Positions 3,646 through 62,978 of a DNA stretch of 64,000 nt are shown here, one piece after another. The stretch lies in assembly GCF_008271695.1 (NCBI RefSeq), contig NZ_VKKY01000002.1, forward strand, positions 992,001 through 1,056,000, written 5' to 3'. Position numbers and translations under genes: made by a program. The notes below the pieces were generated by a model. It was given only the letters and a program-made list of their open reading frames with translations, did not search any database and was not told the DNA's origin. This stretch comes from Rufibacter hautae (GTDB taxonomy: Bacteria > Bacteroidota > Bacteroidia > Cytophagales > Hymenobacteraceae). The first letter of the stretch is position 1; the number at the start of each line of letters is the position of its first letter.

Positions 3646-3705
3646 AGAAGAGCTCCTGTTTTAGCATTGTTTTCTGAGAAACAGCACTAAAACAGGAGCT
3701 CTTCT
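3646..3705. terminator. Bidirectional hairpin between convergent tamL and E1 genes (hairpin family copy a)
   Basis: A perfect 19-bp stem (3646-3664 with 3687-3705) encloses ATTGTTTTCTGAGAAACAGCA, which itself pairs as TGTTTCTC/GAGAAACA-like inner arms. It lies between two converging genes, so it can end both. The inner GTTTTAG...CTAAAAC arms match the hairpin family found across the window. Confidence 0.75.
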
Positions 3706-3743
3706 ACTTTTATATATTACTTGAGCTAAGCTTTTAATCGAAA

Positions 3744-5825
3744 TTAGTAGCCGAGTAGTTCTTCCAGAGCTGCAAACACCTTCTCAGCATTGGGGAGCAT
3801 CATTTTTTCCAACTCCACATTAAGGGGCACGGCAGGTAAGTTCTCGGCGCCCAAGGTGAAGACTGGTGCATCCAAATACTTGAAGCAGGTCTTGCTGATG
3901 CGGCCGGCCAATGACTCCGCGAAGGAATTCTGGAGGGGTTCTTCGGTTAAGACCAAGACTTTGCCGTGGCGTTTCACCGATGCTTCCACTGATTCATAGT
4001 CCAGCGGATTCAAGGTGCGTAGGTCCACGATCTCAACTGAACCAGGTAACCGCTTGCTGGCGGCTTTGGCCCAGTATACGCCCATGCCGTAGGTGATTAC
4101 GGTAAGGCTGTTGCCTTGGTTTAGTTGTTCCTCAGAGGCTTGCTGCACCACGTTGGCTTTCCCCAATGGCAGGATGTAGTCTTCTGCGGGCTCAATAGTT
4201 TTGGCGTCCTCGGTGCCGGGTACTTTGGACCAGTACAGGCCTTTGTGTTCCAGCATGACTACTGGGTTGGGGTCCAGGAAAGCCGCTTTCATGAGACCTT
4301 TCATATCAGCGGCGTTGCTGGGGTACACCACTTTAATGCCCCGGATATTCAGCAAGGTAGACTCAATGCTGCCGGAGTGGTAAGGACCTCCCCCGCCGTA
4401 CGCTCCAATAGGTACTCTGATGAGCGACTGCACCGGGAATTTGCCCATGCTCAGGTAACAGCTTTTGGAAAGTTCCTCCACCAACTGGTTGATACCCGGC
4501 CAGATGTAATCCGCGAACTGGATCTCCACAATGGGTTTTGCACCTACGGATGACATTCCGGCCGTTGATCCAACAATGTAGGCTTCCTGGATGGGCGTAT
4601 TGAACACCCGGGCATCGCCGTACTTTTTGGCCAGCAAGGCCGCCTCCCGGAAAACCCCTCCCAGTTCACCACCTACGTCCTGGCCGTAGAAGAGCGCGGT
4701 GGGGTACTGTTTCAGTAGATCATCCACGGCATGGAGGGCTGCGTCTACCATGGTGGTTTTCTCAGCATTCTGGGGAGCACGCTCGCCACTTTCCCGGGTG
4801 ATGGGGGTTGGCGCAAATTCATGCTGGTGAAAGGTGGCCGGATCTGGGTCTGGTGCTGCCAAAGCCTTTACGTACTGAGCCTGCACTTCCTCTTTCACTT
4901 CCTGGGCAATGGAGATGAGTTCATCAGCGGTGAGGCCCTGTTCCAGCAGGTAAGTGCCCAATTTGGGCAAAGGGTCCAATAAACCATGCTCTGCTAGGTT
5001 ATCGCCGCGGTACCATTCTCTTCTTACTCCGGAGGTATGATGGCCCAGCAAAGGGCACTTGGCATGCACCAGCACCGGCCGACGTTCCTGCCGGGCAATC
5101 CGGAAGGCCTCGGCCATGCCGGTATAGGAATCTATGAAATCAGCGCCGTCGACCCGCATTCTTTCCAGGCCTTTGAAGCCGGCTGCGTACTCATAGGCAT
5201 CCATGGCGCGCATTTCGGAACCCGTGGCTGAAATACCCCAGTCGTTGTCCTGCACCAGGTAAATGATGGGCAATTTCTTAAGCACCGCCATCTGGAAGGC
5301 CTCCGCAACCTCGCCCTCGGTTACGGAGCCATCGCCCAGGGAACAGACCACTACGCGCCCCTCCGCCGCATCCACCAGGTTCTGCGACTCCAGATACGCC
5401 AGCGCGTGGGCCATACCCGTGGCCGGAATGGCCTGCATGCCTGTGGCCGAACTTTGGTGCGGGATCACGGGAAAGCCTGGCCTGCGCAGGGACGGGTGCC
5501 CGTAGTACGTGCGGCCGCCGCTGAAAGGATCGTCGCGCTTGGCCATGAGCTGGAGCATGAGCTCGTAGGGTGTCAGGCCCAGGCCCAATAAAACGGATTC
5601 ATCGCGGTAGTAAACCGATAAATAATCTTTCTCGGTCAGGTGAAAAGCCGTGGCCAGTTGGATGGCTTCGTGGCCGCGAGAGGTACTGTGGACGTATTTG
5701 CTGCAAATGGCTTTGTTTTCTTCGTAGGTGTCGGCCATGGCTTTGGCGGTGAGCATCAGCCGATAGGCTTTTAAGAGAAGCTCAACCTGCACCGGGGCGG
5801 GAGCTTCAACAGACGTCTGGTTCAT
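3744..5825 (-). CDS. 2-oxo acid dehydrogenase E1, fused alpha and beta subunits
   Basis: This 693-aa protein joins the thiamine-diphosphate alpha subunit (about residues 1-330) and the transketolase-like beta subunit (about 350-693) of a branched-chain 2-oxo acid or related dehydrogenase. The ThDP motif GDGS starts at residue 164 and ends with the Asn of VQDN at 194. The beta half carries EIQFADYIWPGINQLVEEL and the C-terminal transketolase domain (VIVDLRTLNPLDYE-like segment). Such fusions are common in Bacteroidota, where they decarboxylate 2-oxoisovalerate-type acids and pass the acyl group to a lipoyl E2. No E2 or E3 gene is nearby, so the substrate is inferred from family only. Confidence 0.88.
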   Translation of the reverse strand: MNQTSVEAPAPVQVELLLKAYRLMLTAKAMADTYEENKAICSKYVHSTSRGHEAIQLATAFHLTEKDYLSVYYRDESVLLGLGLTPYELMLQLMAKRDDPFSGGRTYYGHPSLRRPGFPVIPHQSSATGMQAIPATGMAHALAYLESQNLVDAAEGRVVVCSLGDGSVTEGEVAEAFQMAVLKKLPIIYLVQDNDWGISATGSEMRAMDAYEYAAGFKGLERMRVDGADFIDSYTGMAEAFRIARQERRPVLVHAKCPLLGHHTSGVRREWYRGDNLAEHGLLDPLPKLGTYLLEQGLTADELISIAQEVKEEVQAQYVKALAAPDPDPATFHQHEFAPTPITRESGERAPQNAEKTTMVDAALHAVDDLLKQYPTALFYGQDVGGELGGVFREAALLAKKYGDARVFNTPIQEAYIVGSTAGMSSVGAKPIVEIQFADYIWPGINQLVEELSKSCYLSMGKFPVQSLIRVPIGAYGGGGPYHSGSIESTLLNIRGIKVVYPSNAADMKGLMKAAFLDPNPVVMLEHKGLYWSKVPGTEDAKTIEPAEDYILPLGKANVVQQASEEQLNQGNSLTVITYGMGVYWAKAASKRLPGSVEIVDLRTLNPLDYESVEASVKRHGKVLVLTEEPLQNSFAESLAGRISKTCFKYLDAPVFTLGAENLPAVPLNVELEKMMLPNAEKVFAALEELLGY

Positions 5826-5912
5826 AAGCTAACATTTGTTCGGTTTCCTAAAGTACGGCTAATCCAGAAGAAAGCAAAATGGAGAAATGCAGGACCTCTC
5901 CCATTTATCGCC

Positions 5913-5920
5913 TATTTTTG
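5913..5920 (+). promoter_or_regulatory. Candidate Bacteroidota -7 element for hemF
   Basis: TATTTTTG matches the Bacteroidota consensus TAnnTTTG and lies 33 bases before the hemF ATG. No clear TTG is present at -33, so the assignment is tentative. Confidence 0.4.
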
Positions 5921-5953
5921 CCAAATCGCCTGTAAAACGGAAAAGCAACCATA

Positions 5954-6850: not shown

Positions 6851-6852
6851 AG

Positions 6853-7446: not shown

Positions 7447-7494
7447 AAAACCTAATTGGTCCTGTTTTTGGGAAAACAGGACCAATTAGGTTTT
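7447..7494. terminator. Bidirectional terminator between PAP2 and ribE genes (hairpin family copy b)
   Basis: A perfect 22-bp stem (7447-7468 with 7473-7494) closes the tetraloop TGGG and is flanked by A and T runs. It lies between convergent genes and touches the ribE stop codon. Its inner CCTGTTTT/AAAACAGG arms match the dispersed hairpin family. Confidence 0.85.
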
Positions 7495-9782: not shown

Positions 9783-10433
9783 ATGCTCATAGACAGTTAC
9801 CGACACAAAGGCATGCGCAAAAGCTTGGTGCGCGTTGTTCAGGAAAAAGGAATCAAAGACCCACAGGTGTTACAGGCGCTGGAACAGGTGCCCCGCCACT
9901 TCTTCTTTGAGAAGGCCTTTCTGGAGCAGGCGTATCAAGACAAAGCCTTTCCCATTGGCGAGGGGCAGACCATTTCGCAGCCTTACACGGTAGCTTACCA
10001 GACAGAATTACTGGACATTCACCCACACGACAAGGTACTGGAAATTGGCACGGGGTCTGGTTACCAATGCAGCGTTCTCCTGCAGCTTACCCCCAACGTA
10101 TTTACCATTGAGTACAACGAGGTGCTGTTCCATAAAGCCAACCGCCAGTTCCATTTGATGGGACTCTCTCCTTTCACGTTCCTGGGCGATGGTTCTGAGG
10201 GACTTCCGCAGCACGCTCCTTTTGACAAAATCTTGGTAACGGCGGGGGCTCCCATCATTCCTAAAACGTTACTCCGGCAATTGACCCTAGGCGGTAAATT
10301 GGTCATCCCCGTGGGCGATACCGGGCACCAGAAAATGCTGCGCATCACCCGGCTGGGTGAAGAGGAATTCACCCGGGAGGAATTCGGAAATTTCAAGTTT
10401 GTGCCACTTTTAGGAAAACAAGGCTGGAAATAG
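9783..10433 (+). CDS. pcm: Protein-L-isoaspartate O-methyltransferase
   Basis: This cytosolic repair enzyme methylates isoaspartyl residues of aged proteins with S-adenosylmethionine. The 216-aa protein carries the PCMT signature: QTISQPYTVAYQTELL at about residues 62-77, the SAM motif VLEIGTGSGYQCSVLL at 85-100, and the post-motifs DKILVTAGAPIIP and GGKLVIPVGD. Length matches bacterial Pcm. It is the first of three plus-strand genes in a row (pcm, thioesterase, 210-aa protein) separated by 131 and 24 bases, so it may have its own terminator. Confidence 0.95.
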   Translation: MLIDSYRHKGMRKSLVRVVQEKGIKDPQVLQALEQVPRHFFFEKAFLEQAYQDKAFPIGEGQTISQPYTVAYQTELLDIHPHDKVLEIGTGSGYQCSVLLQLTPNVFTIEYNEVLFHKANRQFHLMGLSPFTFLGDGSEGLPQHAPFDKILVTAGAPIIPKTLLRQLTLGGKLVIPVGDTGHQKMLRITRLGEEEFTREEFGNFKFVPLLGKQGWK

Positions 10434-11110: not shown

Positions 11111-11743
11111 ATGTCTTCTTCACCCGCAGACTTTTTATTCTTACAGCAGTTGTATGGCCAGGACACCCTGTACGTGATCCCTGAACCTACCAGCGAAGAA
11201 GCCATAACCATTCCGGTAAACACTGAGGCAGTTCACGCGCCAGTTCCTGAACCTGAACCAACCCCGCAGCAGGTGGAAACGCCGGCCATGGCTCCTGTAA
11301 TTGCTGAGACTAGAGAGGAACCGGTTGCTGCACCCGCTGTACCGGCAGAAGAAATTAAGTGGCTGGGCGAGGCCGTACACGGAACATATTTATTGTTTGA
11401 AGTACCAGACGGCGTGTTCGGTCAACTACCGCACCATGCGTTCCTGCAGAAGGTGATGGCGGCGGTAGGTCTAAATACGGGTCAGATCAAATTCGGGAAT
11501 ATGTCTCCGGCGCTGGTGCATGACGTGAAAAAGATAGCCGCAGAAAACAAAGCCCGGCACATCATCCTGTTCGGGCAGGGCTTGCCGGTGGCCAACCTCT
11601 CCCGGATGGAGTTCTACCGTATGTACCGGTTTGAGGAGTCGCGCTTCGTTTTGGTGGATTCGTTAGAAGACATTGAGAAAAGCGTTGAGCTCAAGAAAAA
11701 ACTATGGGATGTGCTGCAGAAGATCTTTTTACAGCAGAATTAA
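11111..11743 (+). CDS. Unrecognised 210-aa protein, possibly DNA polymerase III psi-like
   Basis: I do not recognise this family with certainty. Residues about 20-80 are a low-complexity linker rich in Pro, Glu, Val and Ala. The C-terminal part (about 85-210) is a compact alpha/beta domain: strand (TYLLFEVPD), helix (HAFLQKVMAAVGL), a QIKFGNMSPA segment, strand (HIILFGQGLP), and a closing helix (SVELKKKLWDVLQKIFL). The order and the short N-terminal peptide (DFLFLQQLYG) recall the psi subunit (HolD) of the clamp loader, which has an N-terminal chi-binding peptide, but this is a fold-level guess. It follows the thioesterase gene by 24 bases. Confidence 0.6.
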   Translation: MSSSPADFLFLQQLYGQDTLYVIPEPTSEEAITIPVNTEAVHAPVPEPEPTPQQVETPAMAPVIAETREEPVAAPAVPAEEIKWLGEAVHGTYLLFEVPDGVFGQLPHHAFLQKVMAAVGLNTGQIKFGNMSPALVHDVKKIAAENKARHIILFGQGLPVANLSRMEFYRMYRFEESRFVLVDSLEDIEKSVELKKKLWDVLQKIFLQQN

Positions 11744-11756
11744 AAAAATGCCCCTA

Positions 11757-11802
11757 AAACAGAAAGCGGCTGCCATTCTCCAATGGCAGCCGCTTTCTGT
11801 TT
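11757..11802. terminator. Bidirectional terminator between convergent genes
   Basis: A perfect 21-bp stem (11757-11777 with 11782-11802) closes the loop CTCC between two converging genes. The left arm is preceded by CCCCTAA and an A run (ttaaaaaaatg). It lacks the GTTTTAGGC core and so is a separate type of terminator from the dispersed family. Confidence 0.85.
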
Positions 11803-14460: not shown

Positions 14461-14497
14461 TCTGTTTTGGGTCTATTTTCTAAAAAATAGCCGGTAA
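14461..14497. repeat. Degenerate hairpin (family copy t) between alaS and gatB
   Basis: TCTGTTTTGGGTCTATTTTC followed by TAAAAAATAGCCGGTAAACG keeps the core pattern GTTTTgGgtctaTTTTct-AAAAAatagcCggTAAAC. A second small hairpin, ATAGCCG-GTAAA-CGGCTAT, overlaps its right end. Confidence 0.5.
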
Positions 14498-14516
14498 ACG
14501 GCTATCTTAATTAATT

Positions 14517-14541: not shown

Positions 14542-14596
14542 GATTGTCTCTATTTAAGGGTTCTTTTGCTGTAAACAGGTCAGAAACTCCAGATGT

Positions 14597-17356: not shown

Positions 17357-17393
17357 CGTTTTAGCGCTGTTTTTCAGAAAACAAGCTTAAAAG
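17357..17393. repeat. Dispersed hairpin family copy c, between divergent alaS and merR
   Basis: CGTTTTAGCGCTGTTTTTCA then GAAAACAAGCTTAAAAG matches the consensus closely. It lies between two genes that start away from each other, so it cannot be a terminator for either gene. Confidence 0.7.
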
Positions 17394-17398: not shown

Positions 17399-17478
17399 AG
17401 TTCTGAGTTCTGAGTCTTTAGTCCGGAGTCGGCTTGGGATGAGAATGGCTCAGAACTCAGAACTCAAGACTCAGAACT
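17399..17478. repeat. Palindromic CTCAGAACT repeat upstream of merR
   Basis: AGTTCTGAGTTCTGAGTC at 17399-17416 is answered by inverted units (CTCAGAACTCAGAACT and GACTCAGAACT) ending at 17478, nine bases before the merR start codon. A similar palindrome lies just downstream of merR and a third near 21.2 kb. Confidence 0.85.
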
Positions 17479-17487
17479 AACAAAAAA

Positions 17488-19071: not shown

Positions 19072-19890
19072 GTGTATCTACTTTATAACGGCCAAACCAT
19101 TTTAGAAGAAGAATTGCTCTTGCCTATCTCTAACCGGGCCTTCCAGTACAACGATGGTTTTTTTGAGACGATTATCCTAAAAGAAGGCAAAATCAGGTTC
19201 TGGCCCCAGCACTTGGAACGAATCAGAGAGGCTGCCGATGCATTGGGGATTGAAATGCCCGCAGAACTGTTTTCTGATCAATTTTCAAAAACGTTGCTCC
19301 AACTTGCAGAACAGAATAAGTACGGGTCTTTGGCAAGAGTGAAACTGAAAGTTTGGCGGGCGGGTGCCGGGCTCTACACGCCCCAAACAGACAAGGCCGA
19401 ATGGCTTGTCACTGTGCAGGAAGCCCAAAAGCCTCTAACAAACCCCATTCAAGTGGGAATTTGTCAAACGAGTAGAACCATCCCCTCGCCTTTCTCCTCC
19501 TTTAAAGGAGTCAACTCACCAGTGTACGTGTTGGCCAGCCGCGAGAAAGCATCCCGCGGGTTAGACGACCTTATCTTATTAGATCCGGCTGGTAACTTAG
19601 CCGAACTCACCTTCTCCAACCTTTTCTGGATCAAGGACCAGATGCTTTTCACGCCAGCCTTGGCAACTGGATGCTTAAACGGGATTCTCCGTCGGAAGCT
19701 CCTGCAATTGGTGAGCCAAAACAATTGGGATGTACAAGAAGGCTTGTTCAAGCCTGATGCATTGAAAGAGGCGCAGGTAGTTTTTGGCGGAAACGTGACG
19801 GGCCTCAGGATGATTGAGACATTGGACGGAGAAATAATCGGCACCCAGCCACTGGTGCTGGAAAGTATCATGAACGAGCTAGGCTTTTAA
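19072..19890 (+). CDS. Class IV aminotransferase (aminodeoxychorismate lyase / branched-chain type)
   Basis: This 272-aa PLP enzyme starts at GTG. It shows the fold type IV pattern: NRAFQYNDGFFETI near residue 22, the presumed PLP lysine in FSSFKGVNSPVYVLASR near 145, then LDPAGNLAELTFSNLFWI and TGCLNGILRRKLL. The size and DGFFETI segment suit 4-amino-4-deoxychorismate lyase (PabC, folate synthesis), but D-amino acid or branched-chain transaminases look alike. It follows dprA by 48 bases with no folate genes around, so PabC is only the preferred reading. Confidence 0.82.
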   Translation: MYLLYNGQTILEEELLLPISNRAFQYNDGFFETIILKEGKIRFWPQHLERIREAADALGIEMPAELFSDQFSKTLLQLAEQNKYGSLARVKLKVWRAGAGLYTPQTDKAEWLVTVQEAQKPLTNPIQVGICQTSRTIPSPFSSFKGVNSPVYVLASREKASRGLDDLILLDPAGNLAELTFSNLFWIKDQMLFTPALATGCLNGILRRKLLQLVSQNNWDVQEGLFKPDALKEAQVVFGGNVTGLRMIETLDGEIIGTQPLVLESIMNELGF

Positions 19891-19906
19891 CAGAGGCAAA
19901 TCTCAT

Positions 19907-19954
19907 TTTAGCCTGATTTTGCCTAAAGATGCGGAAAACAGAACGGGCCTGTTC
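19907..19954. repeat. Degenerate hairpin (family copy s) between convergent genes
   Basis: TTTTAGCCTGATTTTGCCTA and GATGCGGAAAACAGAAC recall the dispersed family core. A small AGAAC-GGGCCT-GTTCT hairpin overlaps its right end. It lies between the class IV aminotransferase and the M19 dipeptidase and may terminate one or both. Confidence 0.45.
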
Positions 19955-21224: not shown

Positions 21225-21350
21225 AGTCCTGAGTTCTGAGCCTGTAGTTCTGAGTTGAATTTTAAAAAGCAGACTCTAAACCCCATATCCTGTTCAATAG
21301 CCTAAAATCGAAAAACTAAACTCAGGACTCTAGACTCAGAACTCAGAACT
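21225..21350. repeat. Palindromic CTCAGAACT repeat, third copy
   Basis: AGTCCTGAG and AGTTCTGAG units at 21225-21256 are inverted as CTCAGGACT (21321-21329) and CTCAGAACT (21342-21350). The block fills most of the space between the M19 gene start and the threonine synthase stop. Confidence 0.8.
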
Positions 21351-21355: not shown

Positions 21356-22552
21356 TTAGTACCTTCCTTCAATGTTCTCTATGTATTTCTGGCCGGAGCC
21401 GGTATTGAGGAGCAGTACCTTTTCTTCGGGTTTGAGCCAGCCTTGTTTCAGGAGTTTGCGGGCGGCCATCCAGACGGCGGCGCCTTCGGGGGCCACAAAC
21501 AAGCCTTCCTTCCGGGCGATCTCCCGTACCCCTTCCACCATCTCTTCCTCGGTGATGGAGATAGCCGTGCCGCTAGATTGCGCCAGCACCTGCAACATGA
21601 GCGGCTCGCCCAAGGGACGCGGCACGGCCAGGCCGTTGGCAAGAGTAGGCTGGCCATTATAGTTCTGACAATGTTCCTGCAGCCCTAAAAAGGTGTCTAC
21701 AATCGGGCGGCAGTTCTCTGCCTGTACCGCTACCATGCGGGGCAATTGCACATCTTCCTTAAGCCAACCTATGGCAATCATCTCCTGGAAGGCCTTCCAA
21801 ATCCCGATGAGGCCTGTACCGCCACCGGCAGGATAGAGAATCACATCCGGGAGGGTCCAGTTCAACTGCTCGGCAATCTCGTAGCCCATGGTTTTCTTGC
21901 CTTCTATCCGGTAGGGTTCTTTGAGCGTGGAGACATCCAGCAGTTGGATGTCCTGGTTCAGGCGCCGCACCTCGGCTGCGCAGTCGTTGATGAGGCCATC
22001 TATCAAATGGATCTGGGCACCGTACCAGTAACACTCTTCTTTGAAGGCTTTGGGCGTATGCCGGGGCATGACCACCACGGCAGGCAGATGGGCTTTGGCG
22101 CAGTAAGCGGCCATGGCAACCCCAGCATTTCCGGCGGTGGGAATAATGCAGCCCTCAGTGCCTAATTCCAAAGCTTTGGAGATGGCCATACTCAGCCCCC
22201 GTGCCTTAAACGATCCGGTAGGGTTTTTTCCTTCGTCTTTCAGCAGCAAATCACGGAAGCCATAGGCACTGCCCAGGTTTTTGAAATCCAGAATGGGCGT
22301 GAATCCTTCCCCTAAAGAGACTTTGTATTTGTTGTCCAATACGGGGAGAACCTCCTGGTAGCGCCACATGGTGCCTTCTCTATTTTGGAGGGCTTTTTTA
22401 GAAAACGTGCCTGAAAGGTCATACTGCGCCAGCAGCGGTAGGGCACAACAGGAAGAGACACGCTGTTGCTCTTCATGGTCATGGGACTGACCACACTTGG
22501 AACAGGTAAGCGCGGTGATGGTGCTGAGACTGGTTTCTACTTGCGTGGCCAT
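21356..22552 (-). CDS. thrC: Threonine synthase-like PLP enzyme
   Basis: The 398-aa fold type II PLP enzyme has an N-terminal zinc-finger-like region (Cys17, Cys20, Cys35, Cys36), the PLP lysine in KNPTGSFKARGL (Lys116), the phosphate-binding TAGNAGVAMAAY and YPAGGGTGLIG segments. These fit threonine synthase, which turns O-phosphohomoserine into threonine. It is not next to thrA or thrB, and related enzymes with other substrates exist, so the role is probable rather than certain. A LysR gene lies upstream on the same strand, 67 bases away, and might control it. Confidence 0.8.
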   Translation of the reverse strand: MATQVETSLSTITALTCSKCGQSHDHEEQQRVSSCCALPLLAQYDLSGTFSKKALQNREGTMWRYQEVLPVLDNKYKVSLGEGFTPILDFKNLGSAYGFRDLLLKDEGKNPTGSFKARGLSMAISKALELGTEGCIIPTAGNAGVAMAAYCAKAHLPAVVVMPRHTPKAFKEECYWYGAQIHLIDGLINDCAAEVRRLNQDIQLLDVSTLKEPYRIEGKKTMGYEIAEQLNWTLPDVILYPAGGGTGLIGIWKAFQEMIAIGWLKEDVQLPRMVAVQAENCRPIVDTFLGLQEHCQNYNGQPTLANGLAVPRPLGEPLMLQVLAQSSGTAISITEEEMVEGVREIARKEGLFVAPEGAAVWMAARKLLKQGWLKPEEKVLLLNTGSGQKYIENIEGRY

Positions 22553-24429: not shown

Positions 24430-24805
24430 GATTTCTATATTTAAAAGCCCTACTGAATTCCAAGGAAAAGTCACATCAATTGTGATATGCTTAGGTTTTT
24501 ATACGTTCTGGTTTTTAGATAGTTACATTTAGTTCTTCTATTTTTACAATTATGGTGAAAAATCTTTCATTTTCACCCCCTAAAAAATCATTTTGTCAAT
24601 TCTTTGTTTTAAGGCCATTTTCCAGAAATAACACGCAAAACAAAGCAGAGGGAAGGTTTACTTGTCATGTAAACTAAAAGGTAATCTTCAAAAGGAATCT
24701 TGTTTTTCTTAGGTTGAACAGGGTGCTTAAAATAAATCAGCGTTGAAGGCAGTGGAATTTTGCCATATTCGTAGTTTCTTACATTGAAGAATCAACTTTA
24801 CGATT
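24430..24805. other. Gene-free divergent intergenic region
   Basis: This 376-bp AT-rich gap separates a minus-strand small membrane protein gene from plus-strand pncB. It contains one hairpin-family copy (24602-24645). A weak promoter-like pair for pncB, TTG at 24760-24762 and TACATTGA at 24780-24787 with 17 bases between, is visible. Nothing else was recognised. Confidence 0.6.
24602..24645. repeat. Dispersed hairpin family copy d, between divergent genes
   Basis: Perfect outer arms CTTTGTTTT (24602-24610) and AAAACAAAG (24637-24645) enclose AAGGCCATTTTCCAGAAATAACACGC, a degenerate form of the core. Its location between divergent starts argues against a terminator role. Confidence 0.65.
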
Positions 24806-26294: not shown

Positions 26295-26340
26295 TTTCTG
26301 TTTTACCCCTTTTTTTCAGAAAGTAGGGGTAAAACAGAAA
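26295..26340. terminator. Bidirectional terminator between pncB and pncA (hairpin family copy e)
   Basis: A perfect 16-bp stem (26295-26310 with 26325-26340) contains the family GTTTTACCCCT/AGGGGTAAAAC arms and the loop TTTTTTCAGAAAGT. Convergent gene placement supports a terminator role. Confidence 0.8.
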
Positions 26341-28295: not shown

Positions 28296-28345
28296 GCTCC
28301 TGTTTACAAGGGTGATTCTTTATTTAACCTCTAATCTTAAAGGAA

Positions 28346-28380
28346 TTTAGACCTGTTTTCTTAATTTCTGGCTTAAAATA
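28346..28380. repeat. Degenerate hairpin (family copy f) between proB and proA
   Basis: TTTAGACCTGTTTTCTTAAT then TTCTGGCTTAAAATA keeps the family core with a damaged stem. It sits within the probable proB-proA operon. Confidence 0.45.
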
Positions 28381-34134: not shown

Positions 34135-34144
34135 GGTCTGAGGT

Positions 34145-38847: not shown

Positions 38848-38886
38848 CCTGTTTAAGGGCTAATTTTCAGGAAAGTGGCTAAAAGG
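38848..38886. repeat. Degenerate hairpin (family copy h) between sigma and fecR genes
   Basis: CCTGTTTAAGGGCTAATTTT followed by CAGGAAAGTGGCTAAAAGG has the family core (TTTAagGgCtaaTTTTcagGAAAgtgGcTAAA). The gap around it (38641-38922) holds no gene. Confidence 0.5.
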
Positions 38887-39519: not shown

Positions 39520-39877
39520 GGTTACCGTAGAAATTTATAATCTAATATGATCTTTTATCTTATGTAAATCAAATAATTATTAAAATTTAAAAAAGGGCTT
39601 ATTAATTTTTCATCTCTACTAGTATTGTTTTGTTAAAATTGTAAATGATTGTTTTACATGTTCAGCATATGAGGATTTCAGCTGTTGAATAAATAGAAAT
39701 CATCCACCTGCAAAGTTGCTGATTCACAAGCTAGTTAGGTAGGGTGTAGTGGTTTAAGGGTAATCATCGCTTCACGTAAGTTGGCTTGTACCTCATAAAA
39801 AAACCTCCTCGTTTAAGGCTGCTTTTATAGAAGTAGCCTTAAACGAGGAGGTTAATTATCCCTTATTTACTTAATCC
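39520..39877. other. Gene-free region upstream of the sigma gene
   Basis: This AT-rich gap of about 358 bp lies between the start of the sigma gene and the end of the crotonase gene. It contains a strong terminator at 39802-39853. No reading frame with coding character was found in the rest. Confidence 0.6.
39802..39853 (-). terminator. Terminator of the paa cluster's last gene (hairpin family copy r)
   Basis: A perfect 19-bp stem (39802-39820 with 39835-39853) encloses GCTTTTATAGAAGT. On the minus strand it is followed by TTTTTTTATGAGG, a clear T run, as expected after the crotonase gene ending at 39878. The GTTTAAGGCT/AGCCTTAAAC arms link it to the dispersed family. Confidence 0.85.
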
Positions 39878-40642: not shown

Positions 40643-40790
40643 ATGATTTGTTTCTGTTTGTTGGTTGTTTTTGTAAATAGAGCCTTGAAGCTTTAAATCA
40701 AGTTTTAAAAGAGATAATTGGCCTGTTTGCTGAATTCTTTTGGGTAGGAAATACAACAGTGAGCTTATGCTCCACTTGTGAAAAGAACTC

Positions 40791-40855: not shown

Positions 40856-40895
40856 TTGTTTTGAGGCTGATTTCTAAAAATCAGCCCCAAAACAA
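40856..40895. repeat. Dispersed hairpin family copy i
   Basis: TTGTTTTGAGGCTGATTT (40856-40873) pairs with AAATCAGCCCCAAAACAA (40878-40895) with one mismatch and loop CTAA. It follows paaZ on the minus strand and could attenuate transcription into the crotonase gene. Confidence 0.75.
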
Positions 40896-43050: not shown

Positions 43051-43156
43051 ATTTTTGGTTGTTAGTTTCTGATGGTTAATTTTTTGATCTGCAAATGGTG
43101 AACTATAGAAAGGCGTTTAAAGCCGATCTTTGGGAAAACGGGCCTAAAACAGATGC

Positions 43157-47698: not shown

Positions 47699-47742
47699 TC
47701 CTGTTTTTGGCCTACTTAGTCAAAAGCAGCCTCTAAACAGGA
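47699..47742. repeat. Dispersed hairpin family copy k, between paaC and paaD
   Basis: Outer arms TCCTGTTT (47699-47706) and AAACAGGA (47735-47742) pair perfectly and enclose TTGGCCTACTTAGTCAAAAG and CAGCCTCT. It lies inside the operon, so if it terminates at all it must be leaky. Confidence 0.7.
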
Positions 47743-47750: not shown

Positions 47751-48554
47751 TTACCACTCCAACCCCGGATAAGCCCGCTGCAGGTATTGCAACTCGGTTA
47801 AGAGATAGCCCAAGTGCTCTGAGTGCCGGCCAGTTTTGCCGCCTTTCTGCATGAACACGTTTTGGGGCACCTCCAAAGTGGCCTCGGCGAACACCTTACC
47901 CACGTGCGCCTCCCATTGGCTCAGTAAACCGCTGTAATCCGGAATGAAGCCAGCCTGGGCCAGTGCTTTCTCAGTATCGGTCATGGTGTAGAGCTCGCCG
48001 GAGAACATCCAGAGGTTGTCCAGGGCTTTCTGGATGCGGCGGCGGCTTTCCTCAGTGCCGTCACCCAGCCGAATGATCCATTCTGCGCTCCACTTCACGT
48101 GGTAGCTGGCTTCTTTAAACGACTTTGCCGCGATGCCCGCCAGACCTTTGTCGGGGCTGTTTTGGAGCTCTTTCAGCAAAAAGAAGTGAAAACCGTCAAA
48201 GAGAAACTGCCGCATGACCGTGTCCCCGAAATCACCGTTAGGTTGTTCCACCAGCAGCGGGTTCTTGTACTCCACGGCATCCCGCAGGGACGCCAGGTCA
48301 TCCTCGGTGCGCCCCTGGCCTTCCAACTCAGCGGCGTATTGGTAAAGGCTGCGGGACTCTCCAATCAAATCCAGCGCGATGTTAGCCATAGCCAGGTCCT
48401 GCTCCAGGATGGGACCGTGCCCGCACCACTCAGAAAGCCGGTGTCCTAGGATAAGGCTGGTATCGGCGAGTTGCAGGGTGTAGTCATACACGAGCGCCCG
48501 GATCTCAGGCGAATAACCTTGCAGATCAACCGTAGGTTTATGGTGTAGGTCCAT
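47751..48554 (-). CDS. paaC: Phenylacetyl-CoA epoxidase structural subunit
   Basis: I start at the ATG at 48554 (MDLHHKPTVDL), giving 267 aa; the longer frame adds an Arg-rich head that overlaps paaB. PaaC is a catalytically inactive ferritin-like partner of PaaA. The helical bundle is visible as LADTSLILGHRLSEWCGHGP, LALDLIGESRSLYQYAA-like sequence and a KEASYHVKWSAEWIIRLGDG segment, the family hallmark. It starts after paaB with only five bases between. Confidence 0.93.
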   Translation of the reverse strand: MDLHHKPTVDLQGYSPEIRALVYDYTLQLADTSLILGHRLSEWCGHGPILEQDLAMANIALDLIGESRSLYQYAAELEGQGRTEDDLASLRDAVEYKNPLLVEQPNGDFGDTVMRQFLFDGFHFFLLKELQNSPDKGLAGIAAKSFKEASYHVKWSAEWIIRLGDGTEESRRRIQKALDNLWMFSGELYTMTDTEKALAQAGFIPDYSGLLSQWEAHVGKVFAEATLEVPQNVFMQKGGKTGRHSEHLGYLLTELQYLQRAYPGLEW

Positions 48555-49921: not shown

Positions 49922-49965
49922 TTTGTTTTTAGCCTGTTTTCAAGAAAATGCGGCCTAAACATTTT
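49922..49965. repeat. Dispersed hairpin family copy l, between paaE and paaA
   Basis: TTTGTTTTTAGCCTGTTTTC and AAGAAAATGCGGCCTAAACA match the family core closely. It lies directly beside the long GGGGCC inverted repeat. Confidence 0.65.
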
Positions 49966-49967
49966 GT

Positions 49968-50035
49968 AGGGGCCATCCCTTGTGGTTGCCCTAATTGCAC
50001 CAAACAGCAAAGGGCAACCACAAGGGATGGCCCCT
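49968..50035. repeat. Perfect 25-bp inverted repeat AGGGGCCATCCCTTGTGG...
   Basis: Arms 49968-49992 and 50011-50035 are exact inverses and can form a 25-bp stem with an 18-base loop. Inner bases (ATCCCTTGTGGTTGCCC) match the repeat at 45024-45063, so both belong to one family. It lies just past the paaE stop, inside the paa cluster. Confidence 0.9.
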
Positions 50036-50040
50036 CCATT

Positions 50041-51117
50041 TTATTGATCAAAATCTACTACCACGCGCTCGGATAAAGGACGGGCCTGGCAGGTGAGGAT
50101 GTAGCCAGCGGCTACTTCCTCGGGTTCCAGGGAATAGTTCACGTCCATCTCCACCTCTCCTTCCAGCACCTTGGCGCGGCAGGTGCTGCACACGCCGCCT
50201 TTGCAGGAGTACGGAACATCGGCACCGGTTTCGGCGGCGGCGTCCAGGATGGTATTGCCGTAGTATGACATCTCCAGGTTGAGGTAGTTCCCATCCAGAC
50301 GCACCTGCACCCGGCTTTTCTTGTCTTCGTGGGCTTGGGCGTTTTCGGCCCGTTTTTGGGATTTCTGCCCCGATTCAGCGGCGGTAAAAAGTTCGAAGTG
50401 GATGCGCTCGCGGGCTACGCCAGCTTCTTCCAACGCTTCCTTCGCCCCGAAGATCATTTCCTCGGGTCCGCAGATAAAGCACTCGTCTATTTCCTCGGCC
50501 TTGATGATTTTCTGCAGGAACAACTCGGTTTTCCCCTTGTCAATACGCCCGAACAGAAGATCAGTGTCTCCGTGCTCACGGCTGAGGATGTGGTACACGC
50601 TGAGACGTTCCAGAAACTTGTTCTTAAGGCCTTCAATCTCTTCCTTGAACATGATGGAGTTGCGCCCGCGGTTACCGTACAGGAGCAACACCTGGCTTTT
50701 AGGCTCGGCGAGCAGGACCGTCTTGATGATGGAAAGGATGGGCGTGATGCCGCTGCCGGCCGCCACCATAAGGTAGCTTTTCTGCTGTTCTGGATGTACT
50801 TGGGTGTAGAATTTGCCCATGGGCGGCATCACCTCCAGTTCCTCGCCGGGTTGCAACGCCTCATTGGCAAAGGAAGAAAAACGGCCCTCCGGCACTTTCT
50901 TGATGGCTACCTTCCAGATGTTCTCAAGCGGGCTGGAGCAGATGGAATAGGATCTTCTCAGCTCCTCGCCGTTGTGGTGCCTCCTGAACGTGAGGTACTG
51001 CCCTTGGGTATAGCGGAAGGTGTCTTTGAGTTCTTCGGGCACATCCAGGGTCACGGTCACGCTGTCGTGCGTTTCACGGTCTACTTTCTTTATTCTGACT
51101 TTATGAAATCTGCTCAT
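50041..51117 (-). CDS. paaE: Phenylacetyl-CoA epoxidase reductase
   Basis: PaaE passes electrons from NAD(P)H to the PaaA di-iron site. The 358-aa protein has an FNR-like FAD/NAD(P)H part (RRSYSICSSPLE near residue 55, MVAAGSGITPILSIIKTV near 117, CFICGPEEMIFGAKEAL near 215) and a C-terminal plant-type 2Fe-2S ferredoxin domain (CKGGVCSTCRAKV and LTCQARP). Its start overlaps the TetR stop by four bases (ATGA), so regulator and reductase are translated together. It is placed ahead of paaABCD, unlike the usual paaABCDE order. Confidence 0.95.
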   Translation of the reverse strand: MSRFHKVRIKKVDRETHDSVTVTLDVPEELKDTFRYTQGQYLTFRRHHNGEELRRSYSICSSPLENIWKVAIKKVPEGRFSSFANEALQPGEELEVMPPMGKFYTQVHPEQQKSYLMVAAGSGITPILSIIKTVLLAEPKSQVLLLYGNRGRNSIMFKEEIEGLKNKFLERLSVYHILSREHGDTDLLFGRIDKGKTELFLQKIIKAEEIDECFICGPEEMIFGAKEALEEAGVARERIHFELFTAAESGQKSQKRAENAQAHEDKKSRVQVRLDGNYLNLEMSYYGNTILDAAAETGADVPYSCKGGVCSTCRAKVLEGEVEMDVNYSLEPEEVAAGYILTCQARPLSERVVVDFDQ

Positions 51118-52862: not shown

Positions 52863-52906
52863 GCTTGTTTTAGCTGCGTTTTATGAAAATGCATCATAAA
52901 CTGAGC
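52863..52906. repeat. Dispersed hairpin family copy m, between divergent genes
   Basis: GCTTGTTTTAGCTGCGTTTT with ATGAAAATGCATCATAAACTGAGC follows the family core; the inner TGCGTTTT-ATG-AAAATGCA pairs well. Its place between two outward-facing genes rules out a simple terminator. Confidence 0.65.
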
Positions 52907-56536: not shown

Positions 56537-56575
56537 CGTTTTAAGGACCTTTTTAGTAAAAAAAGGTAAAAACAG
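56537..56575. repeat. Dispersed hairpin family copy n
   Basis: CGTTTTAAGGACCTTTTTAG then TAAAAAAAGGTAAAAACAGG has the GTTTTAaGg core and inner ACCTTTTT/AAAAAGGT arms. It directly follows the cold-shock terminator, so it is redundant as a terminator. Confidence 0.6.
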
Positions 56576-57840: not shown

Positions 57841-57882
57841 GCTTTCCCTTTTTGGTTCATTTCTAAAAACCAGATCGAAAGC
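57841..57882. repeat. Dispersed hairpin family copy v
   Basis: GCTTTC (57841-57846) and GAAAGC (57877-57882) enclose CCTTTTTGGTTCATTTCTAA and AAACCAGATC, a worn version of the core (TTTTTGGttcaTTTCtaAAAAcCAga). It lies downstream of the 74-aa gene. Confidence 0.55.
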
Positions 57883-60581: not shown

Positions 60582-60635
60582 GCAGGCTAGGGTTTAGGAC
60601 TTGTTTTTTGAAAACAGGCCGAAACCCTAGCCTGC
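60582..60635 (+). terminator. Terminator of the LVIVD-barrel unit (hairpin family copy o)
   Basis: GCAGGCTAGGGTTT (60582-60595) pairs perfectly with AAACCCTAGCCTGC (60622-60635); the inner part AGGACTTGTTTTTTGAAAAC and AGGCCG is the family core. It lies 33 bases after the barrel gene and is followed by TTCTTG. Confidence 0.8.
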
Positions 60636-60717: not shown

Positions 60718-60770
60718 CCTGGTTTAAGCCTTATTTTGCTAAAACGAAGTAAAAACTCAGGCTAAACCTA
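60718..60770. repeat. Dispersed hairpin family copy p
   Basis: GGTTTAAGCCT and AGGCTAAACC enclose TATTTTGCTAAAACGAAGTA and AAAACTC. The arms differ by one base insertion. It is the second family copy within about 200 bp in the gap between the barrel gene and xdhC (60550-60910), which otherwise holds nothing recognised. Confidence 0.55.
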
Positions 60771-60910: not shown

Positions 60911-62068
60911 ATGAAAGAAATACAGGACATAGTTCAGGCGTTTACCCGGCATACCGCAGAAGGAAAACAGACGGCGCTGGCCACAGTAGTGCACGTGGAA
61001 GGTAGCTCTTACAGAAGACCGGGTGCCCGGATGCTGGTTTCTGATGATGGACAATTAACCGGTGCCATCAGCGGCGGCTGCCTGGAAGGCGATGCCCTCC
61101 GCAAAGCTCGTTTAGCCATGAGTGAGGGAAGACCCGCCTTGGTAAAATATGATACCATGGACGACGATGACGCAAAACTGGGCGTAGGGTTAGGCTGCAA
61201 CGGTATCATCCATATTCTTATTGAACCCATAGACCTCACCTCGTCGCAGCATCCGTTAAGTCTATTGCAGAAAGTGATAGGGCAGCGGCAGGTAGCAGTG
61301 GTGGTCACCTTGTTTTCATTGCAGGACCGCAAAGGTCCCCAGCCTGGCACCTGCTATGTAACCCAATTTGATGAGGAGGTAATTACCCCAGCATTATCAG
61401 AGGCCCTCCTCTCCGAAGTGCAGGCGGATGTTCGGGCCACCCGGTCAAGTCTTGTTTCCAGCACGAAATCCTATAAACATGGCCAAAACACGTTTACCGC
61501 TTTTCTGGAGGTCCTTCAGCCCGCTCCTGCTTTGGTTATTTGCGGGGCCGGAAATGACGTGATGCCCTTGGTGAACATGGCAAGCCTTTTAGGTTGGCCT
61601 ACCACGGTGGTAGATGGTCGGGCCAATTACGCTACCCAGGACCGCTTCCCGCATGCCCGGCAGGTGCTGGTGGCAAAACCAGAGCAGGTATTGCCAAACC
61701 TCACCGTTGACCATACCACCATATTCCTGCTCTTCACACACAACTACAATTATGACTTGGCGATGCTGCGGTTACTGTTGCCTCTGCCCCTGCCGTATAT
61801 TGGTGTTTTAGGGCCAAAAAAGAAAATGGCCCGCATGTTAGACGAGCTACAGGAAGAAGGCTTGCACCTGGAGGAAGCACAAGTGAACAAAGTATTTGGC
61901 CCAGTAGGACTAGACCTTGGTGCAGAAACATCAGAGGAAATCGCGCTTTCGGTTTTAGCAGAGATCAAAGCCGTTTTAGCGCGCAGAAATGCCAGGTTCC
62001 TGCGTGACAAACAAGAAAGCATTCATGCTACGGCGGGTGCATCCATACCTGAACCGACTATTTCTTAA
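60911..62068 (+). CDS. xdhC: XdhC/CoxI-family molybdenum hydroxylase maturation factor
   Basis: XdhC proteins bind molybdenum cofactor, help add the terminal sulfur ligand, and deliver it to xanthine dehydrogenase-type enzymes. The 385-aa protein has the N-terminal XdhC_CoxI domain (about 10-85: ALATVVHVEGSSYRRPGARM, ISGGCLEGDAL) and a C-terminal Rossmann domain (about 200-345: LVICGAGNDVMPLVNMA, YIGVLGPKKKMARML). It heads the operon, with the nucleotidyltransferase gene starting three bases after its stop. Confidence 0.93.
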   Translation: MKEIQDIVQAFTRHTAEGKQTALATVVHVEGSSYRRPGARMLVSDDGQLTGAISGGCLEGDALRKARLAMSEGRPALVKYDTMDDDDAKLGVGLGCNGIIHILIEPIDLTSSQHPLSLLQKVIGQRQVAVVVTLFSLQDRKGPQPGTCYVTQFDEEVITPALSEALLSEVQADVRATRSSLVSSTKSYKHGQNTFTAFLEVLQPAPALVICGAGNDVMPLVNMASLLGWPTTVVDGRANYATQDRFPHARQVLVAKPEQVLPNLTVDHTTIFLLFTHNYNYDLAMLRLLLPLPLPYIGVLGPKKKMARMLDELQEEGLHLEEAQVNKVFGPVGLDLGAETSEEIALSVLAEIKAVLARRNARFLRDKQESIHATAGASIPEPTIS

Positions 62069-62070
62069 CC

Positions 62071-62667
62071 TTGATGACAGGAATAATTGTACTCGCTGCC
62101 GGTTCTTCCAGTAGGTTAGGGCAGCCCAAGCAACAACTCCTATACAAAGGGCAAACCTTGTTGCAACATTCCCTTCAGGCGGCCCTGGCATCTGGCGGAT
62201 CACCGGTAATGGTGGTGTTAGGAGCCAACGCTGAAGCAATCCTTTCCAAAATAGAAGAAACAGAAACAATAGTACTTCATAACCCTCATTGGGAGGAAGG
62301 AATGGCCTCTTCCATTCGGGTGGGCATATCTAAGCTATTGGAAGTTGCTCCTGAATCTACGTCGGCCTTGTTCCTGCTCTGTGACCAGCCCTTTGTTTCT
62401 GCGGATTTGCTTAACCAGATGATCCAGCAGAAAGAGGAAACCCAGAAGGGGATTGTGGCTTGCGCTTATCAAAACACCTTGGGAGCGCCCGTTCTTTTTG
62501 ATCAGCATTTCTTTCCCCGGCTCCAGCAACTGAAAGGCCAAGAAGGTGCAAAAAAGCTACTCGGCCAGTTTCCTGCTGAAGTTTCCCCTGTACCGTTCCC
62601 CGCGGGAGCTGTTGACATTGACACCTTAGCTGATTATGCCTCCCTGAAAGCTGGCGAGGTACAATAA
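62071..62667 (+). CDS. MocA-like molybdenum cofactor cytidylyltransferase
   Basis: The 198-aa NTP transferase has the signature LAAGSSSRLGQPKQQLLYKG at residues 6-25 (nucleotide and metal binding), an acidic CDQPFVSADLL segment near 106, and the usual GAPVLFDQHFFP region. The family adds CMP to molybdopterin before insertion into hydroxylases. Its place between xdhC and the 2Fe-2S subunit of such an enzyme supports this function. Confidence 0.9.
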   Translation: MMTGIIVLAAGSSSRLGQPKQQLLYKGQTLLQHSLQAALASGGSPVMVVLGANAEAILSKIEETETIVLHNPHWEEGMASSIRVGISKLLEVAPESTSALFLLCDQPFVSADLLNQMIQQKEETQKGIVACAYQNTLGAPVLFDQHFFPRLQQLKGQEGAKKLLGQFPAEVSPVPFPAGAVDIDTLADYASLKAGEVQ

Positions 62668-62978
62668 TCTTTCTCCTTCCTTTGCTTTCCTGAGGTTCTT
62701 AAGGTAGAACCTTTTAGGTCACGAGCTTCCAGGATCGGCCGTTTTGAACCTGTTTTTTCAAAATCTACACGAAAACAGCCGTTTTTAAATTGGGCTCTTT
62801 TCTCCTTTCTGCCCCTATTTCCCTTAACTGAACTCCATTTTAACCGTTAGAAAGACAATTGAAAATGGTTCGTCTTTTCTGTTCGGTTTCATGGGCCTAC
62901 CAAACGCCTTCAAGAAATTAGAAAAAGCGTAACTGGCGTCTGTTAAAAGAAAGTTTCACCAGTTCATTCACCGCCCCC
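62668..62978. other. Gap between mocA-like gene and the 2Fe-2S subunit
   Basis: This gap of 311 bp contains one hairpin-family copy (62738-62780). No gene was recognised. It is long for an operon interior, so the oxidoreductase genes may also have their own promoter here. Confidence 0.55.
62738..62780. repeat. Dispersed hairpin family copy q
   Basis: GGCCGTTTTGAACCTGTTTT followed by TTCAAAATCTACACGAAAAC and AGCC follows the family core with damaged pairing on the right side. It is within a likely operon. Confidence 0.6.

What the first reader, a model, noticed from the sequence alone, without database searches (positions are those of the whole stretch)
3646..62780. A dispersed intergenic hairpin family with a common GTTTTAGGC core, about 20 copies
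Between genes across the whole window I see about 20 related 35-55 bp imperfect palindromes. The shared pattern is a copy-specific outer arm, then GTTTTaGgC, tgTTTT, a short CAG-like loop, AAAAca, GcCtAAAAC, then the matching outer arm. Copies are near 3646, 7447, 14461, 17357, 19907, 24602, 26295, 28346, 38848, 39802, 40856, 47699, 49922, 52863, 56537, 57841, 60582, 60718 and 62738. Simple terminators share no such sequence between loci (compare 231-268 or 11757-11802). A conserved core with private arms suggests either a mobile non-coding element that becomes a terminator, or a binding site for an RNA protein or nucleoid factor.
Basis: seen in the sequence. Interest (0 to 1): 0.72.

Follow-up and report, generated by a model that had tools for sequence, protein, structure and literature searches.

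The report
Genus-wide dispersed palindromic DNA tag
A 36-base mirror-symmetric DNA tag is repeated hundreds to thousands of times in each of the 16 genomes searched of one bacterial genus, roughly once every two kilobases, and it behaves more like a "this is my own DNA" label than like a jumping element or a simple transcription stop signal.

Summary
The repeat family is real and larger than reported: 19 of 19 listed places match, and the window has 40 copies at score >=12. In 456 kb sampled there are 292, versus 6 in a Markov control. It occurs in 16 of 16 genus genomes (strict pattern 37-1823, control 0) and is at control level in the sister-genus genomes searched.

It is not mainly a hairpin: two half-sites (YGTTTTRRGSCYGTTTTC) face each other at a 4-bp spacing, and the inner arms do not covary within copies. 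Matching outer arms exist in a minority at gene ends.

It does not look mobile: orthologous gaps keep it, and gains or losses look like point substitutions. Copies tend to avoid each other within 1-2 kb (uncorrected p). Relaxed-motif species also carry copies inside genes, far above synonymous shuffles. One species switched dialect genome-wide (1459 copies versus 2-37).

Best reading: a self-DNA recognition tag read by an unidentified symmetric protein, behaving like DNA-uptake sequences, although the genus lacks pilus-motor ATPases. Main rival: binding sites of a chromosome-organising protein. No binding protein and no uptake was shown.

The parts
282..317 (.). motif copy, score 34.0, convergent gap, just beyond the terminator-like hairpin at 229-270
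585..620 (.). motif copy, score 33.1, inside gene 360-1109
3658..3693 (.). motif copy, score 33.1, convergent gap, with 12-bp matching outer arms (3646-3705)
5903..5938 (.). motif copy, score 27.1, divergent gap
7453..7488 (.). weak copy, score 17.0, mostly a plain long hairpin (7447-7494), between convergent genes
10396..10431 (.). motif copy, score 19.6, inside 3' end of gene 9813-10433
11725..11760 (.). weak copy, score 17.2, overlaps the start of the terminator-like hairpin 11757-11802
14464..14499 (.). motif copy, score 34.9, gap between gatB and alaS; aligned places in G014 score 35.2 and in G003 31.7
14552..14587 (.). second copy in the gatB-alaS gap, score 27.8
17358..17393 (.). motif copy, score 38.6, divergent gap beside alaS; by eye similar to copies in the gatB/alaS region of G004, G006, G012 and G013, with the changed dialect in G012
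19159..19194 (.). motif copy inside a gene, score 20.0; absent (-29) at the ungapped aligned place in G003
19904..19939 (.). motif copy, score 22.7, between convergent genes
21246..21281 (.). motif copy, score 22.0, tandem gap
22382..22417 (.). motif copy, score 25.4, at a gene start (start codon uncertain), aligned places score 30.6 in G014 and 28.5 in G003
24606..24641 (.). motif copy, score 32.5, divergent gap
26300..26335 (.). motif copy, score 32.5, between convergent genes
28344..28379 (.). motif copy, score 24.1 (35.2 in G014), tandem gap
31022..31057 (.). weak copy inside gene 29728-32577, score 18.4
38851..38886 (.). motif copy, score 24.8, tandem gap
39810..39845 (.). motif copy, score 21.8, with matching outer arms (39802-39853)
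40656..40691 (.). motif copy, score 23.9, at a gene start (start codon uncertain)
40858..40893 (.). strongest window copy, score 41.5, tandem gap
43115..43150 (.). motif copy, score 30.3, tandem gap
47703..47738 (.). motif copy, score 28.9, tandem gap
48159..48194 (.). motif copy inside a gene, score 26.9; aligned places score 22.1 in G014 and 26.4 in G003
49925..49960 (.). motif copy, score 35.5, tandem gap
50341..50376 (.). motif copy inside gene 50041-51117, score 20.7
52867..52902 (.). motif copy, score 18.5, divergent gap
56538..56573 (.). motif copy, score 30.7, tandem gap
57847..57882 (.). motif copy, score 19.5, tandem gap
60591..60626 (.). motif copy, score 30.5, tandem gap, with matching outer arms (60582-60635)
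60721..60756 (.). motif copy, score 28.2, same gap as 60591
61454..61489 (.). motif copy inside gene 60911-62068, score 18.9
62741..62776 (.). motif copy, score 32.0, tandem gap

Best explanation
The family is a genus-specific self-DNA recognition tag: a double-stranded, dyad-symmetric signal of two inverted half-sites at a 4-bp spacing, read by a symmetric DNA-binding protein. It probably works like the DNA uptake sequences of Neisseriaceae and Pasteurellaceae: DNA carrying it is preferentially taken up or recombined. Biased transfer then lets copies accumulate by point mutation wherever the sequence is free to change, to about one per 1.5-3 kb (molecular drive). SHOWN by computation: the motif, its symmetry and spacing, genus restriction among the genomes searched, orthologous gain and loss without insertions, constraint on the T-tracts, a tendency to mutual spacing, copies inside genes, and a dialect switch. 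INFERRED: the reading protein, biased uptake or recombination, and drive. A subset at gene ends has additionally been built into hairpin terminators.
For: 16 of 16 genus genomes have it; 41 of 41 other same-family genomes show 0 places at <=1 mismatch. Gain and loss without insertion; uptake sequences are likewise said to arise by point mutation (PMC1939737, passages). Constraint against G014: T-core (positions 3, 4, 14-16) mismatch 0.062 versus 0.238 for flanking A/T in intergenic copies, and 0.062 versus 0.170 inside genes; orthologue score above the mean of a null with about the same number of changes in 34 of 34 intergenic and 29 of 31 coding copies. Copies inside genes: frames 28/28/29 in own; 65 versus 7.2 in synonymous shuffles, repeated in G009 33 versus 4.4 and G008 20 versus 1.9. 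Pairs of occupied gaps within 1.5 kb are fewer than a null stratified by gap type and length in four of four species (p 0.049, 0.034, 0.055, 0.012, uncorrected); in own, coding copies avoid occupied gaps (p 0.0005 at 2 kb). Dialect: 1459 copies of the CATTT form in G012 versus 2-37 in the other 15, G012 being nested beside standard-form species; dialects are described for DUS (PMC3630211, passages). Two Riemerella species, Bacteroidota, are naturally competent without pilus homologues, and R. columbina prefers its own DNA (PMC8459023, PMC7965970, passages and abstract). ComEC in 19 of 19 genomes searched.
Against: No uptake or transformation has been shown. PF00437, the pilus/secretion ATPase family, is above cut-off in 0 of 16 genus genomes (8 have weak sub-threshold matches); it is the motor of the Neisseria, Haemophilus and Vibrio systems. 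ComEC is equally present in the six non-genus genomes of the same search. Described uptake sequences are not palindromes (PMC1939737). Gene 3' ends are favoured: at gap length 80-180, convergent 42/48, tandem 55/114, divergent 4/17 (summed), which free space may explain only in part. In G005 only 7 of 157 copies are inside genes, and coding copies there (6 versus 0.9) and in five other sharp species (2 versus 1.0) are few. A Riemerella transformation protein carries DUF5689; this domain is in 8 of 16 genus genomes and not in the window's own, and in the two loci read it sits beside a SusD-like gene (my reading), so it is no consistent receptor. The spacing test is not significant at 500 bp in any species, at 1 kb in three of four, at 2 kb in own, and at 3 kb in two of four; coding copies avoid occupied gaps in own, only at 2 kb in G009, not in G008. 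Against G003, coding copies are less conserved (T-core 0.133 versus 0.200; 16 of 22).
Confidence: 0.4

Rival explanations
1. Binding sites of a sequence-specific chromosome-organising (nucleoid or topological) protein. A symmetric oligomer contacts four T-tracts over 36-44 bp and needs a site every few kb; sites sit where they do not disturb transcription.
For: Dyad symmetry with rigid 4-bp spacing (in G005 at half-site threshold 14: 124 pairs at spacing 4, 2 at 15, no other spacing above one). Two T-tracts 11 bp apart in each half. Fairly even coverage along the G005 chromosome, 4-9 copies per separate 20-kb piece apart from one piece with a single copy. Mutual spacing and constraint.
Against: A switch of specificity at about 1,459 sites in one species seems costly for an architectural protein. 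No genus-specific HU/IHF-type protein: each genus genome has one strong PF00216 match, as the relatives do. 49 strong unpaired half-sites versus 9 in control in G005 are not explained by a strict dimer. I know of no precedent with thousands of such strong 36-bp sites (recalled).
Confidence: 0.3
2. A transcription-unit boundary element: a protein-bound roadblock, insulator or terminator helper placed at gene ends, some copies doubling as hairpin terminators.
For: Convergent gaps >=80 occupied 41/46 (own) and 32/36 (G005); gaps of 0-40 nt between tandem genes 1/61 and 2/49. Of 40 terminator hairpins lying upstream of a copy, 17 end within -3 to +6 nt of it. Outer arms pair beyond chance mainly in gene-end gaps.
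Against: Occupancy of a gap tends to depend on distance to neighbouring copies. Many copies lie inside genes in the relaxed clade and are conserved there. Terminator-like hairpins are not fewer where the motif is present (own tandem 23/80 with motif versus 8/54 without; G005 19/70 versus 16/60), and 30 lie downstream of the motif against 40 upstream. 31 of 56 divergent gaps of 250-2000 bp carry a copy (summed). No T-run follows it.
Confidence: 0.15
3. A REP/MITE/RPE-like palindromic mobile element, past or present.
For: High copy number, palindrome, extragenic bias, genus restriction; Y1_Tnp matches in 15 of 16 genus genomes.
Against: No clean insertion seen in 40 discordant orthologous gaps; no Y1_Tnp match in G006 with 798 places, and matches in genera without the motif (G017, G018); no GTAG or CGTC tag in the consensus; coding copies in all frames, with ungapped alignment to orthologues lacking the motif in several cases; dialect switch.
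Confidence: 0.04
4. An RNA hairpin family, bound by an RNA protein or acting as terminators through pairing.
For: Consensus arms are complementary; flanks -6 to -1 and positions 6-7 covary in gene-end gaps (389 copies).
Against: Positions 8-18 do not covary in gene-end gaps (z at most 1.6), including the C/G-ambiguous position 9 (0.43 observed, 0.43 expected); no position covaries beyond z 1.9 in 192 divergent and coding copies. No Rfam match in the window.
Confidence: 0.04

Closest known systems
DNA uptake sequences (DUS of Neisseriaceae, USS of Pasteurellaceae)
   Same: Hundreds to thousands of copies, lineage-restricted, dialects between related species, gain and loss without insertion, bias to non-coding DNA with some copies inside genes.
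   Different: 36-44 bp and dyad-symmetric instead of about 9-12 bp and not palindromic; bias to gene 3' ends; genus lacks PilT/PilB-type ATPases above cut-off; no uptake shown.
REP elements and RAYT transposases
   Same: Short palindromes, high copy number, extragenic, often downstream of genes.
   Different: No GTAG/CGTC tag, no dependence on Y1_Tnp genes, no insertions seen, no pairing constraint in the inner arm.
Nucleoid-protein binding sites (IHF/HU type)
   Same: About 36 bp, phased T-tracts, dyad geometry plausible for a homodimer (recalled comparison).
   Different: Far more numerous strong sites; the even (between-base) dyad does not give the 9-bp kink spacing of HU/IHF (recalled); no genus-specific HU paralogue seen.
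Intrinsic bidirectional terminators
   Same: A minority of copies at gene ends carry extended paired arms and T tails.
   Different: Conserved sequence instead of conserved pairing; no T tail in general; copies inside genes.

Membership tests
DNA uptake sequence (DUS/USS) | Strongly over-represented, lineage-specific motif | tested here: met
   16 of 16 genus genomes 37-1823 copies, control 0; of 287 non-genus genomes in the order draw three clearly exceeded control (G025, G133, G158)
DNA uptake sequence (DUS/USS) | Arises by point mutation, not insertion | tested here: met
   27 of 40 discordant orthologous gaps agree in length within 15% (my count), no clean insertion seen; some discordances are threshold effects
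DNA uptake sequence (DUS/USS) | Species dialects | tested here: met
   G012: 1459 copies of CATTT form versus 2-37 in the other 15
DNA uptake sequence (DUS/USS) | Short, non-palindromic core | tested here: not met
   36-bp dyad, 4-bp centre
DNA uptake sequence (DUS/USS) | Type IV pilus uptake machinery | tested here: not met
   PF00437 above cut-off in 0 of 16 genus genomes, sub-threshold matches in 8
DNA uptake sequence (DUS/USS) | Enhances binding, uptake or transformation of DNA | not testable with these tools
   needs experiment
REP/RAYT | GTAG (or CGTC) tag at one end | tested here: not met
   Consensus of 157 G005 copies and of the own copies lacks it; definition from PMC3733652, passages
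REP/RAYT | Cognate Y1_Tnp transposase in the genome | tested here: not met
   G006 has 0 matches but 798 motif places; the other 15 genus genomes have matches, but so do genera without the motif
REP/RAYT or MITE | Insertion/empty-site polymorphism | tested here: not met
   no clean insertion in 40 discordant gaps
Intrinsic terminator | Paired stem under selection | tested here: not met
   Inner arm not covarying; outer arms paired in a minority
Intrinsic terminator | T tail downstream on the sense strand | tested here: not met
   Sense-oriented tandem copies nearly symmetric, no T run; 18 of 236 gene ends have a T-tailed hairpin centred on the motif
HU/IHF-type site | Bound by HU/IHF-family protein | not testable with these tools
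   One strong PF00216 match in each genus genome, as in relatives

The most novel reading that the evidence does not exclude
The genus uses a palindromic self-DNA recognition code with species dialects, read by an unknown pilus-independent uptake or recombination machinery of Bacteroidota: an uptake-sequence system in that phylum, and a dyad-symmetric one.
Probability: 0.35. Interest if true: 0.9.

Novelty: new variant of a known kind. Interest (0 to 1): 0.77.

Why it matters
If it is a self-DNA tag, it is an independent origin of an uptake-sequence-like system in a phylum where the studied competent Riemerella species lack pili and use largely unknown machinery, and the motif itself is a bait to fish out the receptor. 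If instead it is an architectural site, it is a genome-wide array of thousands of strong, conserved protein sites in a bacterium, whose specificity has been rewritten in one species. Either way G012 (switched dialect), G005 (sharp motif) and the window's clade (relaxed motif with copies inside genes) form a natural comparison of how thousands of sites follow a change of reader.

Tried and rejected
Rfam scan of the window: no match. Mobile-element reading: orthologous gap comparison and Y1_Tnp search speak against it. Terminator-by-pairing: covariation, T-tail and terminator co-occurrence tests. HU family: no genus-specific paralogue. ComEC: present in 19 of 19, not discriminating. DUF5689 as a Riemerella-type receptor: 8 of 16 genus genomes, next to SusD-like genes in the 2 of 6 fetched loci that I read; dropped. 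Look-alikes outside the genus: in G025 and G158 the copies seen share long conserved flanks, so they look like parts of longer repeats; G133 unresolved. De novo gapped-dyad search: the motif is the top signal in own DNA (z 25.3); top signals elsewhere were 9.8 (G017), 10.5 (G018), 15.3 (G016, TAAT-type repeats in a 60-kb sample, not followed) and 6.9 (Hymenobacter loci), none with this layout. Naming the genus failed: the genome-contig scan returned Hymenobacter as best (74%) and may leave out close records; a plasmid search gave only a Gloeocapsopsis fragment. Nearest-neighbour test of coding copies alone was inconclusive (24 of 300 null draws as low in own; 5 copies in G005, 267 of 300). Literature: the listings of the searches showed no description of this repeat; only CC-licensed PMC papers were searched, and of the papers cited I saw passages found by term (and abstracts), not whole texts.

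Limits: gene calls are a home-made codon-score caller; PWMs were trained on the sequences they scanned (controls were scanned with the same PWM); blastn alignment favours conserved sites, and many intergenic copies were unaligned or had indels and are not in the constraint counts; the genomes of the genus were sampled in stretches, only pattern and family searches saw them whole; spacing p-values are not corrected for five distances and four species. In one search the second species was scored at >=12 and own at >=14, so some discordances are threshold effects. In some searches the allowed mismatches differ (3 and 2). Counts summed by gap length are mine.


Full report
OBSERVATION. The 19 listed places all lie on copies of one motif (scores 17.0-41.5). 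The window has 40 copies at PWM score >=12. A simple two-arm consensus scan gave 35 window hits, against 0, 0, 0, 2 and 2 in five Markov shuffles. In the own genome (5.84 Mb) the pattern GTTTT-N7-TTTT-N4-AAAA-N7-AAAAC with up to 2 mismatches has 1153 places versus 4 for the reversed control. A PWM built from 456 kb finds 292 copies at score >=12 (6 in an order-2 Markov control), which extrapolates to roughly 3,700 per genome.

ANATOMY. The sharpest form is in G005 (440 kb of its 4.82-Mb single contig sampled; 157 copies at score >=20, none in the reversed control). It reads YGTTTTRRGSCYGTTTTCY and its reverse complement, total core 36 bp, extending a few bases outward. In each half two T-tracts lie 11 bp apart. 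At half-site threshold 14, pairs of inverted half-sites occur at a spacing of 4 bp (124), with 2 at 15 and no other spacing above one; 49 half-sites are unpaired, against 9 in the reversed control. In the own species spacings 3 and 5 also appear at lower counts.

NOT A PAIRING STRUCTURE. Pooled over 581 copies from three species, inner-arm positions 8-18 show no within-copy covariation in gene-end gaps (389 copies, z at most 1.6); in divergent gaps and genes (192 copies) no position exceeds z 1.9. Position 9, which accepts C or G, pairs at 0.43 observed versus 0.43 expected in gene-end gaps. Covariation exists at flanks -6 to -1 and positions 6-7 (and weakly at 2, 3 and 5), only in gene-end gaps. 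When copies with paired flanks are set aside, the flank signal largely goes, while position 6 stays (z 4.9). So a subset at gene ends has become hairpins: >=7 of 10 flank pairs in 8 of 54 convergent, 6 of 98 tandem, 1 of 37 divergent and 0 of 71 coding copies (own).

WHERE IT IS. Own: 57 convergent, 39 divergent, 102 tandem, 92 inside genes, 2 edge. Gaps >=80 occupied: own convergent 41/46, tandem 82/134, divergent 32/60; G005 32/36, 71/130, 12/39. Gaps of 0-40 nt between tandem genes: 1/61 and 2/49. The sense-oriented sequence around tandem copies is nearly symmetric, without a T run. At 236 gene ends with exactly one copy in the gap, a T-tailed hairpin was found upstream of the motif in 40, downstream in 30, centred on it in 18, otherwise overlapping in 10 and absent in 138; 17 of the 40 upstream ones end -3 to +6 nt from the motif. 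Terminator-like hairpins are not fewer where the motif is present.

INSIDE GENES. Of 85 copies wholly inside genes in own, 28, 28 and 29 lie in the three frames. Observed counts at score >=16 against synonymous-codon shuffles: own 65 versus 7.2 (maximum 10), G009 33 versus 4.4, G008 20 versus 1.9, G014+G003 18 versus 0.8, G005 6 versus 0.9, five other sharp species pooled 2 versus 1.0, outgroup G016 1 versus 0.2. Abundant copies inside genes are thus a feature of the relaxed-motif species, which a gatB tree places on one side of a branch (support 83/94).

EVOLUTION. Against G014 (85.0% identity over 224 kb), the T-core of intergenic copies mismatches at 0.062, flanking A/T at 0.238. Inside genes it is 0.062 versus 0.170. 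Orthologue scores exceed the mean of a null with about the same number of changes in 34 of 34 intergenic and 29 of 31 coding copies. Against G003: 10 of 11 and 16 of 22; there the coding T-core (0.133) is closer to flanking A/T (0.200). Many copies were unaligned or had indels and are not in these counts (G014: 32 intergenic and 3 coding unaligned, 29 and 4 indel; G003: 62 and 14 unaligned, 22 and 3 indel). Orthologous gaps mostly agree: G014 both 67, own only 5, other only 5, neither 44; G003 40/8/11/26; G008 14/7/4/9. Of the 40 discordant gaps 27 agree in length within 15%, and in 23 of these at least 19 of the 36 motif positions are identical (my count). The other 13 differ more in length; the three with the motif mostly gapped are among them. 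No clean 36-bp insertion was seen, so gain and loss is best read as substitution.

RANGE AND DIALECTS. 16 of 16 genomes of the genus have it (strict pattern 37-1823, control 0; loose pattern 491-2018). In nine genomes of five sister genera counts are 0-11 against 0-14 in the control, and 41 of 41 same-family genomes outside the genus show none at <=1 mismatch. Of 287 non-genus genomes in the order draw, three exceeded control clearly (a few more slightly, such as G041 with 6 versus 0); two of the three (G025, G158) look like parts of longer repeats, G133 is unresolved. In G012 the sequence TGTTTT has become TCATTT on both halves: 1459 copies against 2-37 elsewhere, and the standard form stands at 37. 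G012 groups with G013 and G006, which keep the standard form (support 99/96). Copies in the gatB/alaS region of G012, G006, G013 and G004, matched by eye, show the change within a conserved surrounding.

SPACING. Keeping gap type and length fixed, pairs of occupied gaps within 1.5 kb are fewer than expected: own 52 versus 60.1 (p 0.049), G005 24 versus 31.2 (0.034), G009 29 versus 34.6 (0.055), G008 11 versus 17.5 (0.012). At 1 kb p is 0.012, 0.47, 0.08 and 0.17; at 2 kb 0.14, 0.020, 0.025 and 0.003; at 3 kb 0.58, 0.021, 0.029 and 0.17; at 500 bp none is significant. In own, coding copies avoid occupied gaps (77 versus 93.3 within 2 kb, p 0.0005); G009 shows this only at 2 kb (p 0.013) and G008 not at all (uncorrected). 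Copies therefore tend to act as a coverage system. This argues against a pure gene-end function and for either a self-DNA tag or an architectural array.

MECHANISM. I favour a self-DNA tag of the uptake-sequence kind. The objections are length, symmetry and the lack of PF00437 ATPases (0 of 16 above cut-off). The last is softened by published work on Riemerella (passages read): competence without pilus homologues, and preference of R. columbina for its own DNA (PMC8459023, PMC7965970). A receptor lead, DUF5689, did not hold. The architectural-protein rival explains symmetry and spacing but makes the dialect switch harder. No binding protein was identified, and I found no experiment on it in the searches made.

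IDENTITY. The genus is unnamed in the tools. Rufibacter is my guess from recall (GC about 51%, family of Hymenobacter), not a result.

Noticed in passing
window 29728-38640: A run of large genes with only five weak motif copies (scores 12.1-18.4), none of which could be aligned to the matching region of G014 or G003; possibly a newly acquired island.
   Followed up: partly
L209 (G005:C1:2260001-2280000): Only one motif copy in 20 kb, against 4-9 in the other separate 20-kb pieces of the same chromosome; may be a foreign island.
   Followed up: partly
G133 (loci L189-L191): A genome of another family has 78 places of the T-tract pattern versus 3 in control, with a TTTTGGGCAAAAA-like core and no obvious shared flanks in the three loci read; could be an independent analogue.
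   Followed up: partly
G158 (L179-L182) and G025 (L183-L188): Longer dispersed repeats whose inner 36 bases resemble the motif's T-tract layout.
   Followed up: partly
L219:1275-1310 (IMGVR_UViG_2839759663_000002): A viral contig carries one perfect strict-pattern copy directly behind a terminator-like hairpin.
   Followed up: partly
window 17399-17483 and 17830-17902: AGTTCTGAGT-type inverted repeats in two neighbouring stretches, unrelated to the motif.
   Followed up: no
window 49965-50038 and 45024-45063: A long near-perfect inverted repeat (28-nt arms, 96%) beside the motif copy at 49925, and a second one at 45024-45063; both left arms contain TGTAGGGGC.
   Followed up: no
G000:C2:1102047-1106279 (own genome, outside the window): A 1411-aa gene that looks like a maltooligosyl trehalose synthase / 4-alpha-glucanotransferase fusion (my reading, not scanned) carrying three motif copies inside its coding sequence.
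   Followed up: partly
G004, G009 (L281, L285) and others: DUF5689 lipoprotein-like genes in 8 of 16 genus genomes; beside SusD-like genes in the two loci read.
   Followed up: partly
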